A stretch of 64,000 nucleotides of DNA from contig OX638341.1 of NCBI GenBank assembly GCA_951812965.1, positions 726,438 through 790,437 on the forward strand, in the 5' to 3' direction. This document shows positions 14,545-38,062 of the stretch, in pieces; within the stretch, counting starts at the first letter, position 1; each line of letters begins with the position of its first letter. The notes under the pieces were generated by a model that worked only from the letters and a program-made list of their open reading frames with translations, was not told the origin of the DNA and did no database searches. A program made the position numbers and the translations under genes. Source of the stretch: an uncultured Pseudohongiella sp. Its GTDB lineage: Bacteria > Pseudomonadota > Gammaproteobacteria > Pseudomonadales > Pseudohongiellaceae.

Positions 14545-15684
14545 TTGCAAAGTAAACTCCCACAAGTTGGCACTACTATATTTACGGTCATGTCGCGCAT
14601 GGCTGCGGAGCATGGGGCGATCAATTTGTCTCAGGGATATCCGGATTTTGATTGTCCCGAGCGCTTGCGCGAGTTGGTGGCCGAGCGCCTGAACGGCGGC
14701 TGTAATCAGTATCCGCCTATGGCCGGGGTCGTGGAATTGCGCGAGCGCATTGCGGAAAAAGTAGCCGCGTATTACGGCTTCAGCGCCGATCCGGAGACTG
14801 AAATCACCGTTACTTCCGGCGCTACCGAGGCGGTGTTCGACGCGGTGCAGGCAGTGGTGCATCCGGGTGACGAGGTGATCATGTTCGACCCGGCTTACGA
14901 CTGTTACGAACCCGCGGTGCAACTTGCCGGCGGCAGGGCCGTACGCCTGCCCCTGACTCAGCCGGATTATGGCATCGACTGGGATCTCGTGGCCGGGAGC
15001 ATCACCGGCCGCACTCGCTTGATCATGATCAACAGCCCGCATAATCCCTGCGGCTCAATTCTCGACAGCGCCGATCTCGACCGGCTTGCAGAACTGATCC
15101 GGGGCAGGGATATTTTCGTGCTTTCGGACGAAGTTTATGAACACATGGTGTTCGACGGGCTCGGTCACGCCAGCGTCGTGGGCCATGAGGAATTGCGCGC
15201 GTCGAGTTTCGCGATTTTTTCCTTTGGCAAGACCTATCATGCAACCGGCTGGAAACTCGCGTATTGTGTTGCTCCTCCGGCGTTGACGGAAGAGTTTCGC
15301 AAGGTGCACCAGTTTGTTACCTTTACCAGTTCCAGTTTCGTGCAATACGCCATCGCCGATTTCATGGCCGAATGCCCCGGGCACGCGCACGAGTTGCCGC
15401 GGTTTTATCAGCGCAAACGCGATCTGTTCTGTAAATTACTGGCGCCGTCGCGCTTTCGTTTCACGCCGTCCGCAGGCACCTATTTCCAGTTGGCGGACTA
15501 TTCGGCGATTTCCGATCTTTCCGACCGGGAATTCGTCAATTGGCTCACGCGGGAAATCGGTGTGGCCGCCATTCCGCTGTCGCCTTTCTATCGCACGCCC
15601 TCGGGTGCGCGCCACATCCGATTCTGTTTCTGCAAGGAAGACGCTACCCTGGAACGCGCGGCGGAAATCCTGTGCCGATTGTAA
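14545..15684 (+). CDS. Class I aminotransferase, methionine aminotransferase (YbdL) type
   Basis: PLP enzyme moving an amino group from methionine or other amino acids to a 2-oxo acid. 379 residues. SKLPQVGTTIFTVMSRMAAEHG and NLSQGYPDFDCP are typical of the YbdL group. The PLP lysine lies in FSFGKTYHATGWK, the Asp-Tyr cofactor motif in LSDEVYEH and NSPHNPCG. An in-frame TAG ends four bases before the TTG start, so translation must begin at this TTG or later (next ATG at 14590). The TTG start preserves the family N-terminus. It ends just before queG. Confidence 0.88.
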   Translation: MQSKLPQVGTTIFTVMSRMAAEHGAINLSQGYPDFDCPERLRELVAERLNGGCNQYPPMAGVVELRERIAEKVAAYYGFSADPETEITVTSGATEAVFDAVQAVVHPGDEVIMFDPAYDCYEPAVQLAGGRAVRLPLTQPDYGIDWDLVAGSITGRTRLIMINSPHNPCGSILDSADLDRLAELIRGRDIFVLSDEVYEHMVFDGLGHASVVGHEELRASSFAIFSFGKTYHATGWKLAYCVAPPALTEEFRKVHQFVTFTSSSFVQYAIADFMAECPGHAHELPRFYQRKRDLFCKLLAPSRFRFTPSAGTYFQLADYSAISDLSDREFVNWLTREIGVAAIPLSPFYRTPSGARHIRFCFCKEDATLERAAEILCRL

Positions 15685-15692
15685 GACGCAAG

Positions 15693-16778
15693 GTGAAAAA
15701 ACCTCGAGCAGATCTTGATTTTCCGGCCCTGGCCGGGCGCATACGCGAGTGGGGCGGGGAACTCGGTTTTCAGCAAGTCGGAATCACCGACATCGATCTG
15801 GGAAGCTATCGCAGGCATCTCGAGTCCTGGCTGGAACAGCGGCATCACGGCGAGATGTCCTATATGGCGCGCCACCACAACAAGCGCTGCCATCCGGACA
15901 AGCTCCATCCCGGCGCCGCACGCATCATCAGCGTGCGTATGGACTACGACCACGTCGGGGAAAACTCGCTCGATCCCATGGCGGAAGGAGACGCTGCCTA
16001 CGTCGCGCGCTACGCCCGGGGCCGCGACTACCATAAGATGATGCGGCTGCGCCTGCAGCGGCTGGCGGACCGGATCGAGCAAGAAGTGGGCAGCCATTCC
16101 TATCGCGCTTTCGTCGATAGCGCGCCGGTGCTCGAACGGGCGATCGCGGAGAAGGCCGGGCTCGGCTGGATCGGCAAGAACACCATGCTCATCAATCCCG
16201 AGGCCGGCTCCTGGTTCTTCCTCGGTGAACTGTTTACCGACCTGCCTTTGCCGGTGGACGAGCCTGGCGGCGCCCATTGCGGCACTTGCCGCGCCTGCCT
16301 AGACATTTGCCCCACCGGCGCTTTCACCGGCCCCAACAGCCTCGATGCGCGCAAATGCATATCCTATCTGACGATCGAATTGCGCGGGCCAATTCCGGAA
16401 GAACTGCGCGAACCCATGGGCAATCGCATCTTCGGCTGCGACGACTGCCAGATCGTTTGTCCCTGGAACAAGTTCGCGCGAATCTCGGCCGAGGCCGACT
16501 TCGAGCCGCGGCATCAGCTCGACTCGGTTGGACTGGCGCAACTGTTTGCCTGGACCGAAGACGAATTCAAGGAAAGAACCGCCGGCTCGGCAATCCGCCG
16601 CATCGGCTACGAATGCTGGCTGCGCAATATCGCCGTGGCGCTGGGTAATGCGCCGGCGAGCGAGGAAACCGTCTCGACCCTGCGCGCCCGCCTCGGCCAT
16701 CCCTCCGAACTCGTCGCGGAACACGTCCGCTGGGCGCTGGCCCGGCAGCAGGAAAAAGCGGACAGATTGTCTGATTGA
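15693..16778 (+). CDS. queG: Epoxyqueuosine reductase QueG
   Basis: Last step of queuosine synthesis in tRNA, using cobalamin and two [4Fe-4S] clusters. 361 residues. Family motifs: GFQQVGITD, HGEMSYMARH, YARGRDYHKMMR and DSAPVLERAIAEKAGLGWIGKN. The ferredoxin motif is CGTCRACLDICPTGA and the second cluster Cys set is in CDDCQIVCPWN. A HEAT-like C-terminal region (SAIRRIGYECWLRNIAVALG) is intact. I chose the GTG giving VKKPRADLDFPALAGRI from alignment with E. coli QueG. Another in-frame GTG 21 bp upstream would overlap the aminotransferase stop. Confidence 0.95.
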   Translation: MKKPRADLDFPALAGRIREWGGELGFQQVGITDIDLGSYRRHLESWLEQRHHGEMSYMARHHNKRCHPDKLHPGAARIISVRMDYDHVGENSLDPMAEGDAAYVARYARGRDYHKMMRLRLQRLADRIEQEVGSHSYRAFVDSAPVLERAIAEKAGLGWIGKNTMLINPEAGSWFFLGELFTDLPLPVDEPGGAHCGTCRACLDICPTGAFTGPNSLDARKCISYLTIELRGPIPEELREPMGNRIFGCDDCQIVCPWNKFARISAEADFEPRHQLDSVGLAQLFAWTEDEFKERTAGSAIRRIGYECWLRNIAVALGNAPASEETVSTLRARLGHPSELVAEHVRWALARQQEKADRLSD

Positions 16779-16788
16779 ACCTGTTTTC

Positions 16789-16803
16789 GGGCGAGGCATG
16801 CCT
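16789..16803. repeat. Left part of a type A palindrome cut by the IS110 element
   Basis: GGGCGAGGCATGCCT is the first 15 bases of the type-A palindrome. The expected CGCCC is replaced by the IS left end (TGTCTGTTACTAG). The missing right part, CTCGCCCCTAC, is found at 18050 on the other side of the element. Confidence 0.85.
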
Positions 16804-16860
16804 TGTCTGTTACTAGTCTGTTAGATTGAATCCCACATCTGGGCCCACGGGAGGGTCCAG

Positions 16861-17006
16861 CCTTCGGCGCCCGATGCATCGGGCGCCGAAGGTGGCGGTG
16901 GACGGGCCGTAGGCATGCTGGTCTTAGAGACCGTGGGCGAGCGTGGCCGCCACCGTCTTTCCCGACATCCTGAACGGTTGCGTGGGCTACGAGCCCGAAT
17001 GACAAG
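16861..17006 (+). ncRNA. Predicted bridge RNA of the IS110 element
   Basis: Three structures in order. (1) A perfect 32-base palindrome (16861-16892) as 5' hairpin. (2) A loop closed by GTGGCGG/CCGCCAC with inner hairpin GGTCT-TAG-AGACC. Its left side holds AGGCATGC (16911-16918), equal to the target left half. Its right side holds GGGCGAG (16935-16941), complementary to the target right half CTCGCCC. (3) A loop with inner hairpin GGGCT-ACG-AGCCC. Its left side holds ACGGTTGC (16974-16981), equal to the IS right end. Its right side holds GACAAG (17001-17006), complementary to CTTGTC at the left end. This matches the target-binding and donor-binding loops known from IS621. Exact RNA ends are unknown. 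Confidence 0.82.
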
Positions 17007-17024
17007 GTGAGGAGGACGGAAAAG

Positions 17025-17990
17025 ATGTCTGAGTATAACCCGGATTTTGTTGGTGTCGATGTATCGAAAGACTTTCTGGACGCGCATCGGCTGCGTGACG
17101 GCGTAGCAAAGCGCTATGCCAATGATCCCGGCGGGATCCGCGCACTATTGCGCTGGGCCGGACCGGAGGTGCGCGGCGTGGTGTACGAGCCGAGCGGCCC
17201 CTACCACCGCGATCTCGAGCAGGCGCTGCTGAACGCGAGCATGACAGCGCTGAAAGCGAACCCGCGGCGGGCGCGGGAGTTCGCGCGTGCGGCCGGGCGA
17301 CTGGCCAAGACCGATCGCGCCGATGCCGAATGTCTGGCGCGCATGGGCGTTGCGCTGCCCCTGCGCCCGGTCAAACCGCGCTCGAAGCAGCAGCGGGAAC
17401 TGGCCGAACTTACCCTGCTGCGCGATAGCCTGGTCCGGCAACATGTGGCCGAGAACAATCGCAGCGGGCAACTCCAGTTCGCCTATGCCAAACGCTTCCA
17501 GCAACAGTGCATCCGCCAACTGGCGAGAAAAATCGCCCAGTTGGACAAGCGCATCGCAGAACTGGTCCAGGCCGATCCCGACTTGGCGCATAGCTTGGCC
17601 TTGCTGACCTCCATCCCTGGCATCGGCCACCAGACCGCCGTCATCCTGTTGACCGACATGCCCGAACTCGGACAGCTCGATCCCAAGGCCGTCGGCAGCC
17701 TCGCCGGCCTGGCTCCGGTGGCGCGCGACTCCGGCTTGCGCAGTGGGAAGCGGCATATCCAGGGCGGACGACCACGTGTACGCCGAAGCTTGTACATGGC
17801 TGCGCTCGCCGCAATTCGTTGCGCGCCACCGCTGAAAATCAAGTACCAGCGAATGAAAAACGCCGGCAAACCCCCAAAAGTCGCCATCGTCGCCATCATG
17901 CGCAATCTCGCCGTACTCGCGAACCACTTGCTCGCCGAAAATCAGCCATGGTCTCCCGAACCACCACGAAGAGCGGCTTGCGCCTCTTGA
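17025..17990 (+). CDS. IS110-family transposase (DEDD recombinase)
   Basis: 321-residue RNA-guided recombinase. The N-terminal RuvC-like domain shows the DEDD tetrad as Asp12 (FVGVDVSKDFLD), Glu55 (VVYEPSGPYHRDL), Asp97 and Asp100 (KTDRADAE). A helical linker follows. The C-terminal Transposase_20 domain has LTSIPGIGHQTAVILLTDMP and LAGLAPVARDSGLRSGKR, where Ser236 is the likely catalytic serine. AGGAGG precedes the ATG. All key residues are present, so the enzyme is probably active. Confidence 0.95.
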   Translation: MSEYNPDFVGVDVSKDFLDAHRLRDGVAKRYANDPGGIRALLRWAGPEVRGVVYEPSGPYHRDLEQALLNASMTALKANPRRAREFARAAGRLAKTDRADAECLARMGVALPLRPVKPRSKQQRELAELTLLRDSLVRQHVAENNRSGQLQFAYAKRFQQQCIRQLARKIAQLDKRIAELVQADPDLAHSLALLTSIPGIGHQTAVILLTDMPELGQLDPKAVGSLAGLAPVARDSGLRSGKRHIQGGRPRVRRSLYMAALAAIRCAPPLKIKYQRMKNAGKPPKVAIVAIMRNLAVLANHLLAENQPWSPEPPRRAACAS

Positions 17991-18049
17991 TTACAACGAC
18001 TTCAACCCGGAGGATACAATCTGAATCAATACTTCACGCAACACGGTTG

Positions 18050-18388
18050 CTCGCCCCTACGGTCAATCGCAGAACATGCGACTCAGGCCGACACATGCTC
18101 GCCCCTACGATCAATCGCAGAACATGCGACTCAAACCGACACATGCCTCGCCCCTGCGATCAATCGCAGAACATGCGACTCAAGCCGACACATGCTCGCC
18201 CCTGCGGTCAATCGCAGAACATGCGACTCAGGCCGACACATGCTCGCCCCTGCGATCAATCGCAGAACATGCGACTCAGGCCGACACATGCTCGCCCCTA
18301 CGATCAATCGCAGAACATGCGACTCAAACCGACACGTGCCTCGCCCCTGCGATCAATCGCAGAACATGCGACTCAGGCCGACACATGC
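18050..18388. repeat. 48-bp tandem repeat array, 7 units
   Basis: Seven units of 48-49 bp start at 18050, 18098, 18147, 18195, 18243, 18291 and 18340. Consensus pieces: CTCGCCCCTRCGRTCAATCG, CAGAACATGCGACTCA, RRCCGACACATG. Units differ at only a few positions and have no unique spacers, so this is not CRISPR. Each unit begins with the right half of a type-A palindrome, and some keep CATGCCTCGCCCCT. The first unit directly abuts the IS110 right end. Confidence 0.92.
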
Positions 18389-18393
18389 TGTAG

Positions 18394-18413
18394 GGGCGAC
18401 GCATGCGTCGCCC
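18394..18413. repeat. Type B palindrome
   Basis: Perfect GGGCGACGCATGCGTCGCCC closing the 48-bp array, with TGTAG on its left. It ends 4 bp from the orn stop codon and could form a hairpin at the 3' end of the orn message. Confidence 0.85.
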
Positions 18414-18417
18414 GCGC

Positions 18418-18960
18418 TCAGCAGCCGATGAAATGGCGGCGGTAGTATTGCAGCTCGGCGACGGATTCCCGCACGTCTTCGATTGCCTTGTGGCTGCTGA
18501 CCTTGCTGTAGCCGTCCAGCACTTCGGGTTGCCAGCGGCGCGCGAGTTCCTTGACGGTGCTGACGTCGAGATTACGGTAGTGAAACCAGGCTTCGAGATC
18601 CGGCATGTAACGGGCGAGAAAGCGCCGGTCCTGGCATATGGTGCTGCCGCACATGGGCGATGACTCGCGGCTGGTATGGCGCCGGCAAAAGGAAATGGTG
18701 CGCCTTTCGGCTTCGGCCTCGTCGACCGAACTGGACCGGACTCGGTCGATCAGGCCCGACGCGCCATGGTGCGTCTGATTCCATTCGTCCATCGCTTCGA
18801 GCAGCGACTCGGGCTGGCGAATGGCGAGCACCGGGCCTTCCTCAATGATTTCGAGTTGCGGGTCGGTGATGAGGGAGGCGATTTCGAGAATTCGGTCGCT
18901 GCCCGGGTCGAGCCCGGTCATTTCGAGATCGATCCAGATCAGGTTGAGATTGCTGTCCAT
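18418..18960 (-). CDS. orn: Oligoribonuclease
   Basis: 3'-5' exoribonuclease that degrades 2-5 nt RNAs and pGpG. 180 residues, usual length. DEDDh exonuclease motifs: Asp and Glu in [12 protein letters not shown], Asp in the second motif ([14 protein letters not shown]) and His/Asp in [13 protein letters not shown]. The ATG gives [16 protein letters not shown]. It is divergent from rsgA, the same arrangement as in E. coli. Confidence 0.95.
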
Positions 18961-19049
18961 GCGAATACTTCCAATGGAAAGTGTACTGGCGCAATTGTAA
19001 CACGGCGCGGTGGCGCCCATGATTTGCAGGTGGGTGTCCCCTTGTTTCT

Positions 19050-19079
19050 TGTAGGGGCGAGGCATGCCTCGCCCCTACA
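19050..19079. repeat. Extended type A palindrome between orn and rsgA
   Basis: A perfect 30-base palindrome: the type-A core plus symmetric TGTAG and CTACA flanks on both sides. The flanks are mirror images, so this copy looks like two left ends joined at the core. Confidence 0.85.
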
Positions 19080-19193
19080 TGCTGAAGGCGCACACCAGAA
19101 TGACAGAGAAGGGGAATGTGCGATAATTCCGGCATGGGTGTCCCCTTTTCACATTTTTCCTCATTTTGTCTGCCAGAGACCGGCGGCTAGGCC

Positions 19194-20141
19194 ATGCCGG
19201 CCGGGCGCAGACTCAGCAAACAGCAGCAACGCCGCATCGCCGCGCGCATGGAAGATCGCTCCGGCGAGGAACGATCCGGAGTCATCATCAGCCATAACGG
19301 CAGGCAACTTGAAATCGAGGACGCCTCGGGCGATGTGGTGCGCTGCCATGCCCGCGCCAATCTGCCGCAAGTGGTCACCGGCGACCGGGTAAACTGGGCG
19401 CCGGACGACGCCGAAGGCGGCGTGGTCACCGGCCTCGAACCGCGCCGCAACGAGTTCGGCCGCGCCGACAAGGGTGGCCGTTTCCGGCCAATCGCCGCCA
19501 ACATCGATTTCGTGCTGACGATGTTCGCCACCGTGCCGGAAACCGAAATGAGCGTGATCGACCGATACCTGGTGGCAATCGAAAACCTGGGCGTTCAATG
19601 CCTGCTCGTGCTCAACAAGATCGACCTGCCGCCTTCGAATCCGACGCTGCTGGCGCGCATGTCCGAAATCTATCGTGAACTGGACCTGGAATTGTTCGAA
19701 GTCTCGGCGCTGACCGGCGCCGGCGTCGACGCGCTCGCCAAAAGGCTTGAGGGATTGACCGCGGTAGTCGTCGGCCAATCCGGCGTCGGCAAGTCATCGC
19801 TGCTGAACCGGCTCGGCAAGCAGCCGCTGGCCGAAGTCGGGGAACTCGACGCCTGGCGCCGCGGCGGCACCCATACCACCACGGCCGCGCGGCTGTTTCA
19901 TCTGCCGGGTTTCGATCTGATCGACTCCCCGGGAGTACGCGAGTTCAACCTCGGACATCTGCAAGCCTCCGAGGTAGTAGACGGTTTCATCGAATTGAGG
20001 TCCCTGGCCGAACATTGTAAATTCCGCGATTGTTCACATCGGGTCGAACCGGGCTGCGCGATACTGGCGGCCGCCGAAAACGGCGCCGTCAGCAGCGAGC
20101 GGCTGCGCAGTTACACGCGGATACTCGACAGCCTGCAATGA
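19194..20141 (+). CDS. rsgA: Ribosome small subunit-dependent GTPase RsgA
   Basis: Circularly permuted GTPase that matures and checks 30S subunits. 315 residues. An OB-fold region (about 30-105) is followed by the permuted motifs: G4 LNKIDLP, G1 VVGQSGVGKSSLLNRL and G3 DLIDSPGVREF. The C-terminal zinc site reads CKFRDCSHRVEPGC. The switch segment GGTHTTT is intact. The ribosome-binding site is weak. It heads a run with the sulfurtransferase, psd and rpiA genes on the same strand. Confidence 0.95.
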   Translation: MPAGRRLSKQQQRRIAARMEDRSGEERSGVIISHNGRQLEIEDASGDVVRCHARANLPQVVTGDRVNWAPDDAEGGVVTGLEPRRNEFGRADKGGRFRPIAANIDFVLTMFATVPETEMSVIDRYLVAIENLGVQCLLVLNKIDLPPSNPTLLARMSEIYRELDLELFEVSALTGAGVDALAKRLEGLTAVVVGQSGVGKSSLLNRLGKQPLAEVGELDAWRRGGTHTTTAARLFHLPGFDLIDSPGVREFNLGHLQASEVVDGFIELRSLAEHCKFRDCSHRVEPGCAILAAAENGAVSSERLRSYTRILDSLQ

Positions 20142-29369: not shown

Positions 29370-29449
29370 CGACAAACTCCCGTTCTTACCTTGTTTTTGC
29401 GGGCGGCTATTGTCCCGCAGATGCGCCCGGGATGCCAGTGGCCACGGGC

Positions 29450-29946
29450 GGGCGACGCATGCGTCGCCCCTACAGCGTCGCAAGCGGTTCACAAGACCGA
29501 TTTACAGTCACGGCTTCGAGGGACGGGCGGGCGACGCGTGCGTCGCCCCTACAGCGTAGCAAGCGGTTCACAAGACCGATTTCCAGTCACGGCTTCGAGG
29601 GGCGGGCGGGCGACGCGTGCGTCGCCCCTACAGCGACGCAAGCGGTTCACCAGACCGATTTCCAGTCACGGCTTCGAGGGACGGGCGGGCGACGCATGCG
29701 TCGCCCCTACAGCGTCGCAAACGGTTCACAAGACCGATTTCCAGTCACGGCTTCGAGGGATGGGCGGGCGACGCGTGCGTCGCCCCCACAGCGTCGCAAA
29801 CGGTTCACAAGACCGATTTCCAGTCACGGCTTCGAGAGGGACGGGCGGGCGACGCGTGCGTCGCCCCTACAGCGTCGCAAACGGTTCACAAGACCGATTT
29901 CCAGTCACGGCTTCGAGGGATCGTAGGGGCGAGGCATGCCTCGCCC
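29450..29946. repeat. 79-bp tandem array, 6 units, with type B palindromes
   Basis: Type-B palindromes start at 29450, 29529, 29608, 29687, 29766 and 29847. Four have centre GCGTGC instead of GCATGC. Each is followed by a conserved 57-59 bp segment (AGCGTCGCAA, CGGTTCACAAGACCGATTTC, CAGTCACGGCTTCGAG). The array ends in a perfect type-A palindrome (29927-29946), so it has the B and A ends of one element with its interior multiplied. No unique spacers, so not CRISPR. Confidence 0.92.
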
Positions 29947-37238: not shown

Positions 37239-38062
37239 GCCGCCGGGGGATGGCATGAATGTTTGTCTTGCTGTAGGGGCGAGGCATGCCTCGCCCGCGA
37301 ATCCCCCGAAAATCCTGCCATACCCGCGAACGGCCCCGAAACCGTGCAACACCCGCGGGCGACGCATGCGTCGCCCCTACCGGTTCGATGGACATCGCGC
37401 CGGGGGATGGCATGAATGTTTGTCTTGCTGTAGGGGCGAGGCATGCCTCGCCCGCGAATCCCCCGAAAATCCTGCCATACCCGCGAACGGCCCGGAAACC
37501 GTGCCACACCCGCGGGCAACGCATGCGTCGCCCCTACCGGTTCGATGGACATCGCGCCTGGGGATGGCGTGAATGTTTGTCTTGCTGTAGGGGCGAGGCA
37601 TGCCTCGCCCGCGAATCCCCCGAAAATCCTGCCACACCCGCGAACGGCCCCGAAACCGTGCAACACCCGCGGGCGACGCATGCGTCGCCCCTACCGGTTC
37701 GATGGACATCGTGCCTGGGGATGGCGTGTATGTTTGTCTTGCTGTAGGGGCGAGGCATGCCTCGCCCGCGAATTCCCGGAAAATCCTGCCACACCCGCGA
37801 ACGGCCCCGAAACCGTGCCACACCCGCGGGCGACGCATGCGTCGCCCCTACCGGTTCGATGGAGATCGCGCCGGGGGATGGCGTGAATGTCTGTCTTGCT
37901 GTAGGGGCGAGGCATGCCTCGCCCGCGAATTCCCCGAAAATCCTGCCACACCCGCGAACGGCCCCGAAACCGTGCAACACCCGCGGGCGACGCATGCGTC
38001 GCCCCTACCGGTTCGATGGACATCGTGCCGGGGGATGGCATGAATGTTTGTCTTGCTGTAGG
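37239..38062. repeat. 157-bp tandem array, 5 units plus partial sixth, with both palindromes
   Basis: Period exactly 157 bp. Type-A cores at 37277, 37434, 37591, 37748 and 37905. Type-B cores at 37357, 37514 (one change), 37671, 37828 and 37985. Between A and B: GAATCCCCCGAAAATCCTGC and ACGGCCCCGAAACCGTG. Between B and the next A: CGGTTCGATGGACATCGCG and GATGGCRTGAATGTTTGTCT. The units are nearly identical, pointing to recent expansion. The several open frames through it are repeat translations, not genes. Confidence 0.95.

What the first reader, a model, noticed from the sequence alone, without database searches (positions are those of the whole stretch)
16861..17006. IS110 bridge RNA whose target loop is programmed for the host's own dispersed palindrome
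Seen: within a loop closed by GTGGCGG/CCGCCAC, one side carries AGGCATGC, identical to the 8 bases just left of the CT insertion point. The other side carries GGGCGAG, the exact complement of CTCGCCC just right of it. The inner hairpin GGTCT-TAG-AGACC separates them. Established: IS621 and other IS110 elements use a bridge RNA with left and right target guides flanking such a hairpin. Inference: this element is addressed to the type-A palindrome, present at more than ten places in this window alone, so it has many safe landing sites.
Basis: partly seen in the sequence, partly recalled or inferred. Interest (0 to 1): 0.93.

Follow-up and report, generated by a model that had tools for sequence, protein, structure and literature searches.

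The report
IS110 element addressed to genome palindrome
A mobile DNA element carries a predicted guide-RNA gene whose two short stretches match its landing site exactly, and all six copies in this genome sit at that same site inside a palindrome repeated about four hundred times, so the RNA likely steers the element there, as in the known IS621 system.

Summary
Window 16802-18051 is an IS110 element (1,250 bp with both CT cores). Its upstream non-coding region folds like a bridge RNA. The target loop carries AGGCATGC (16911-16918) and GGGCGAG (16935-16941), which match AGGCATGC-CT-CGCCC.

All 6 of 6 identical copies in the genome sit at this site. The 15-mer occurs 416 + 419 times in 3.4 Mb; the reversed-pattern control gives 0. 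In congener G119, where the exact 15-mer occurs 3 times, 2 of 2 copies of a 95%-identical element sit at it, one where the palindrome's outer arm is broken at 2 of 5 bases.

A second IS110 (44% identical protein, 7 of 7 copies) sits at the palindrome's outer edge, TCGCCC-CT-ACGG, and its own loop matches TCGCCC-CT-ACG. So the 13 IS110 recombinases found in the genome share one repeat at two addresses.

IS110 elements in REP palindromes, and bridge RNAs, are known, so this is a new member of a known kind. Least expected: two copies share a 39-bp extension ending in a second right end, which suggests that the longer unit moved as a block. Transcription was not testable.

The parts
16789..16803 (+). 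Left flank: GGGCGAGGCATGC + core CT, the interrupted palindrome; left target AGGCATGC is 16794-16801. On the minus strand these 15 bases are again a complete target.
16802..18051 (+). IS110 element A, core CT counted at both ends (1,250 bp)
   Evidence: ends from six aligned copies
16861..16892 (+). 5' hairpin of the predicted bridge RNA (14 bp)
16894..16957 (+). Target-binding loop, closed by GGCGGTGG (16894-16901) with CCACCGTC (16950-16957)
   Evidence: fold, z -4.60 for 16860-17012
16911..16918 (+). Left target guide AGGCATGC, identical to the left target
16920..16932 (+). Inner hairpin GGTCT-TAG-AGACC of the target loop
16935..16941 (+). Right target guide GGGCGAG, complement of CT-CGCCC
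16974..16980 (+). Left donor guide ACGGTTG, identical to the element's right end
16984..16996 (+). Donor-loop hairpin GGGCT-ACG-AGCCC
17001..17006 (+). Right donor guide GACAAG, complement of the left end CT-TGTC
17025..17990 (+). IS110 recombinase gene (321 aa): DEDD_Tnp_IS110 and Transposase_20 domains
18043..18049 (+). Right end of the element (left donor) ACGGTTG
18050..18056 (+). Right core CT and right target CGCCC

Best explanation
This is an IS110-family insertion sequence whose upstream non-coding region is predicted to make a bridge RNA; the target loop of that RNA matches AGGCATGC-CT-CGCCC, the site at which all six copies in the genome sit, and likely guides the recombinase there. 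Shown by sequence: the recombinase domains, the element ends, the four guide matches and the insertion sites. Inferred from the published IS621 work: the circular form joins the two ends around CT, the bridge RNA is transcribed, its donor loop holds that joint (ACGGTTG-CT-TGTC), its target loop holds the genomic 15-mer, and the recombinase exchanges strands at CT. The 15-mer lies on both strands of a dispersed 20-bp palindrome, GGGCGAGGCATGCCTCGCCC, so the element has hundreds of possible sites. The core lies off the palindrome's centre, so the left flank keeps a complete site on the opposite strand after insertion. A second, distant IS110 in the same genome carries guides for the palindrome's outer edge.
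For: 6 of 6 identical copies at the same site with the palindrome otherwise intact. 15-base guide-target match, 0 of 2000 random flank pairs reach it and 0 of 200 in the control that re-draws the flanks at every candidate end. Donor guides match both ends. 2 of 2 copies in G119 at the 15-mer, one where the palindrome's outer arm differs at 2 of 5 bases. Element B, 7 of 7 copies, uses another position of the repeat and its loop matches that position. Stable fold. Both IS110 domains; IS621 and ISCro4 are the nearest solved structures.
Against: No transcript, circle or activity was tested. The promoter across the joined ends is weak (best crossing it 7 of 12) and no plus-strand promoter-like site was found in 16700-18450. 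Rfam has no match. The left guide pairs poorly with the core. One G119 copy has GGCGAG in place of GGGCGAG, one base short of its target. Element B's target-guide score is weaker with fixed ends (34 of 2000 reach it). The target itself contains the palindromic AGGCATGCCT, so RNA guidance and palindrome recognition are not fully separated by sites alone.
Confidence: 0.9

Rival explanations
1. The recombinase recognises the palindrome or its hairpin directly, and the loop resembles the palindrome only because the element once captured a piece of it.
For: 8 of 8 sites of element A hold AGGCATGCCT and 7 of 8 are perfect 20-bp palindromes.
Against: The captured pieces sit exactly where the IS621 guides sit, split by a hairpin and in the right strand sense. 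Element B, in the same palindrome, cuts at its edge and its loop matches that other position. The loops of L027 and L031 match other, unrelated flanks (0 of 200 each; L049 and L058 are not significant there). In G119, 10 of the 12 other palindrome-like places (up to 3 mismatches) lack the 15-mer and none of the 12 is occupied. Against this point: about 165 sister palindromes are also unused, but with six insertions that is not significant (about 0.13 by my arithmetic).
Confidence: 0.07
2. The copies were spread by homologous recombination between repeats and not by transposition.
For: Copies are 100% identical and are flanked by the same repeat.
Against: Outside the element, pairs of copies share only 13-22 bp on the left and 5-9 bp on the right, except L003/L004 with 44 bp on the right. 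In G119 the palindrome family is small (13 places with up to 3 mismatches).
Confidence: 0.03

Closest known systems
IS621 of E. coli (IS110 family; PMC11208160, passages read)
   Same: DEDD plus serine recombinase, CT core, bridge RNA in the left end with target then donor loop, target in a REP palindrome; insertion assay hit REP elements in 144 of 173 sites in that paper.
   Different: Different repeat and guides; the right target guide matches 7 bases here (core included), and IS621's is shorter; the left guide here does not cover the core.
ISPpu9 and ISPpu10 of Pseudomonas putida (PMC1525189, abstract and results section read; ISPpu9's family is recalled)
   Same: Two dissimilar ISs in one genome, all copies in one REP family, 2-bp direct repeats.
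   Different: Those two share one position in the REP; elements A and B here use two positions of the palindrome.
ISPa11 and other IS1111-type elements with a seekRNA (PMC11187229, passages read, abstract start)
   Same: RNA-guided choice of a REP target.
   Different: IS1111 elements have the RNA region downstream of tnp and subterminal inverted repeats; here the long non-coding region is upstream.

Membership tests
IS110 family | N-terminal DEDD (PF01548) and C-terminal Transposase_20 (PF02371) domains | tested here: met
   8.8e-19 and 2.6e-19, both over the curated cut-offs
IS110 family | Short core repeated at both ends, precise re-use of one target | tested here: met
   CT at both junctions, 6 of 6 copies at one site
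IS110 family | Long non-coding region upstream of tnp (IS110 rather than IS1111 type) | tested here: met
   223 bases from the left core to the start codon (window 16802-17024) against 61 bases from the stop codon to the right core inclusive
IS110 family | Circular intermediate | not testable with these tools
   needs PCR or reads
Bridge RNA | Target loop with left and right guides matching the flanks | tested here: met
   8 + 7 bases, 0 of 2000 random flank pairs reach the score
Bridge RNA | Donor loop with guides matching the element's own ends | tested here: met
   7 + 6 bases
Bridge RNA | Structured RNA with conserved helices | tested here: met
   z -4.60; element B z -5.32; Rhodobacter-type L027 only z -1.37; 10 of 29 consensus pairs with a two-sided change in 8 aligned sequences, covariation term only -0.51
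Bridge RNA | Transcribed and bound by the recombinase | not testable with these tools
   no expression data
Bridge RNA | Promoter formed by the joined ends | tested here: inconclusive
   best site across the joint TTGCTT-17-TAGATT, 7 of 12
REP element with a RAYT transposase (for the palindrome) | Y1 transposase in the same genome | tested here: not met
   PF01797: 0 matches in the own genome; the control search rings in 5 of 14 named genomes

The most novel reading that the evidence does not exclude
Docking in a dense palindrome family lets bridge-RNA elements grow. A remnant right end left in a neighbouring palindrome is read by the same donor guide, so the element leaves with host DNA attached and re-inserts as a longer unit (1,287 bp instead of 1,248, counting one core); copies L003 and L004 already show such a unit at two sites. 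At the same time unrelated bridge RNAs converge on different positions of one docking repeat whose site survives insertion.
Probability: 0.45. Interest if true: 0.62.

Novelty: new member of a known kind. Interest (0 to 1): 0.47.

Why it matters
It is a good natural test of bridge-RNA targeting: one genome offers 835 exact sites and a congener 3, and the element sits at the guide-specified 15-mer in both. Two distant IS110s in one genome hold guides for two positions of one repeat. If the longer unit of L003/L004 did move as a block, bridge-RNA elements have a simple route to pick up neighbouring host DNA, which can be tested in a laboratory strain.

Tried and rejected
Rfam search of 15500-19500: no match up to E 1. 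Palindrome spread by a resident RAYT: not supported in this genome. IS110 as the source of the palindromes: unlikely, since congeners G104, G021, G022, G033 and G109 hold the 15-mer (44, 41, 32, 13 and 6 matches) but no DEDD_Tnp_IS110 match. Search for close relatives on DNA: one genome-contig scan gave 3 loci at 45-46%, viral contigs none, 97 relatives only the own genome at E <= 1e-60, 398 genomes of the phylum 2 at E <= 1e-75, the own one included. The 78%, 78% (partial) and 58% protein relatives (best 120 of 4479 listed) were not placed on DNA.

The automatic guide finder with all 16 core dinucleotides gave wrong, higher- or equal-scoring ends for two of the seven B copies (L010, L012), which lie among repeats, nothing for L039 and L040, and 'skipped as short' for none shown. 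With CT only L025 and L026 were mis-ended, apparently because their left core reads TT, and L058 and L048 got other ends than or uncertain ends beside. Except for elements A and B, ends were chosen by the same score, so the 'n>=obs' figures there are only fair for A (window and G119) and B; one search is the fairer control and used 7 of the 13 loci. Promoter scans: weak. The wording was mended and the direct-recognition rival kept at 0.07. Literature: the strings GGGCGAGGCATGCCTCGCCC, GGCATGCCTCGCCC and GGGCGACGCATGCGTCGCCC are in 0 papers of the library. Whether an extended unit with a second right end has been reported for IS110 was not searched for beyond the word 'tandem' in PMC11208160 (0 hits).

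Full report
What is there. The window copy is an IS110 element from the CT core at 16802-16803 to the CT core at 18050-18051. Its ends were fixed by aligning six copies found in the host genome (one contig, 3,425,201 bp): all six are identical through the element, and outside it pairs share only part of the interrupted palindrome (13-22 bp left, 5-9 bp right), with L003/L004 as the exception. The recombinase (17025-17990, 321 aa) has both IS110 domains; its nearest solved relatives by sequence are ISCro4 (9t56, 7.2e-32) and IS621 (8wt6, 1.3e-27).

The RNA. The region 16860-17012 folds better than all 200 shuffles (z -4.60). In order it holds a 14-bp hairpin, a target loop closed by GGCGGTGG/CCACCGTC, and a donor loop. 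The target loop carries AGGCATGC (8 bases, identical to the left target) and GGGCGAG (7 bases, complement of core plus right target) around the hairpin GGTCT-TAG-AGACC. The donor region carries ACGGTTG (identical to the right end) and GACAAG (complement of core plus left end) around GGGCT-ACG-AGCCC. This is the order described for IS621 (PMC11208160, passages read).

Is the match more than chance? With ends fixed by copy comparison the target guides score 15; 2000 random flank pairs average 7.13 with maximum 13. A control that re-draws flanks for every possible end and maximises again gives 0 of 200 for the window element, the G119 element, element B, L027 and L031, but 3 of 200 for L049 and 12 of 200 for L058, which therefore do not count as support (7 of the 13 loci). 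With fixed ends element B is weaker: score 11, reached by 34 of 2000.

Where copies sit. In the host genome 6 of 6 copies interrupt a perfect GGGCGAGGCATGC-CT-CGCCC. The 15-mer AGGCATGCCTCGCCC occurs 416 times forward and 419 times reverse, control 0; an intact palindrome supplies one on each strand, so there are about four hundred palindromes. The sister palindrome, counted by its half CGCATGCGTCGCCC, occurs 164 + 169 times and is not used; with six insertions that alone is not significant (about 0.13 by my arithmetic).

Congener G119 (single contig, 3,537,599 bp) is a second test. The exact 15-mer is found there 3 times, one of them being the left flank of a copy. G119 has two copies of a 95%-identical element. 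One interrupts a perfect palindrome; the other interrupts GAGAGAGGCATGC-CT-CGCCC, which has the 15-mer but differs from the palindrome at 2 of the 5 bases outside it. The two empty 15-mers of G119 each differ from the palindrome at 1 base. With up to 3 mismatches G119 has 13 palindrome-like places, one of them the flank of a copy; of the other 12, 2 hold the 15-mer and 10 do not. So both insertions are at intact 15-mers; the numbers are too small to exclude a role of the palindrome by themselves.

A second address on the same repeat. The genome has seven copies of another IS110, element B, 44% identical in protein. 7 of 7 sit at CTCGCCC-CT-ACGG, the outer edge of the same palindrome. Element B's loop has TCGCCCCT and, after a hairpin of different sequence, CGTAG, complementary to CT-ACG; the next target base is not matched. 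Its donor guides ATAGATAC and CAAACAAG match its own ends. The string CSTCGCCCCTACGG occurs 49 + 43 times, 19 of the 92 listed being the CGTC form by my count. A domain search lists 13 IS110 recombinases in this genome, the six of A and the seven of B, so all 13 share one repeat at two positions; two further fragments were found by protein search. In P. putida, ISPpu9 and ISPpu10 also share a REP, but at one position (PMC1525189, results section).

A site that survives. The core lies off the centre of the palindrome. The left flank after insertion, GGGCGAGGCATGCCT, read on the other strand is again the complete 15-base target, and one search counts exactly such a match beside the G119 copy. 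A second insertion facing the first is therefore predicted to be possible; none is seen in the six copies. Element B's insertion leaves the whole A site intact.

A longer unit. Copies L003 and L004 are identical over 1,311 bp, the other 14 pairs over 1,268-1,278. The extra bases to the right are CGCCC, a 32-base stretch that ends in CGCAACACGGTTG, and a third CT (39 bp); after the next CGCCC the flanks differ. The related locus L066 shows an undisturbed pair of palindromes around a similar spacer. The second right end thus looks like the remnant of a copy that once sat in the second palindrome. The 16-base spacer string is found exactly only at these two loci. The simplest reading (inferred) is that the donor guide accepted the outer right end and the longer unit moved as a block. 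Gene conversion is a rival, though it would have to stop close to the repeat on both sides. A 5'-truncated copy with the right junction remains at 2156351-2156479.

What is not shown. No transcript, no circle, no activity. A promoter across the joined ends is weak. 'Safe' landing rests on little: 0 of 12 exact palindromes in the window fall inside a Pfam domain, while 10 of 12 fall in crude ORFs of 100 aa or more, which cover 89% of the window and so say little. The window copy lies between the end of the gene upstream (stop at 16776-16778, queG-like by recall) and the end of an exonuclease gene (18418, RNase_T domain).

Verdict. The finding is right and stronger than its author could know, but the kind is known: IS elements in REP palindromes, ISPpu10, ISPa11 and IS621 among them, and their RNA guides are in print. 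I found no mention of this palindrome. Particular to this case are the repeat family, two addresses on one repeat, the copies in the congener and the extended unit.

Noticed in passing
G000 contig 1 at 181385, 3246972, 2140156, 1369507, 2359724, 2714572, 119899 (loci L007-L013): Second IS110 (element B, 1,289 bp with both cores), 7 copies, all at the outer edge of the same palindrome, with its own matching bridge-RNA-like loop.
   Followed up: yes
L003 and L004, right of the element: Both copies carry an identical 39-bp extension ending in a second right end CGCAACACGGTTG-CT; the extended unit seems to have moved as a block.
   Followed up: partly
window 18048-18389: Tandem array of about 7 units of 48 bp starting at the right end of the element, each unit holding CTCGCCCC, half of the palindrome.
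   Followed up: no
window 29444-29946 and 37241-38062: Tandem arrays (79 and 157 bp units) that contain the palindromes; the palindrome is also multiplied by local amplification.
   Followed up: no
genus of the window (84 genomes): The exact 15-mer is present in 11 of 84 genomes, 835 matches in this one and at most 44 in any other; how the palindrome spread is unexplained, as no Y1 transposase was found here.
   Followed up: partly
G000 contig 1: 2156351-2156479 (L015, L023, L059): Truncated copy of element A: its last 125 bp up to the right junction, with an intact palindrome close by.
   Followed up: partly
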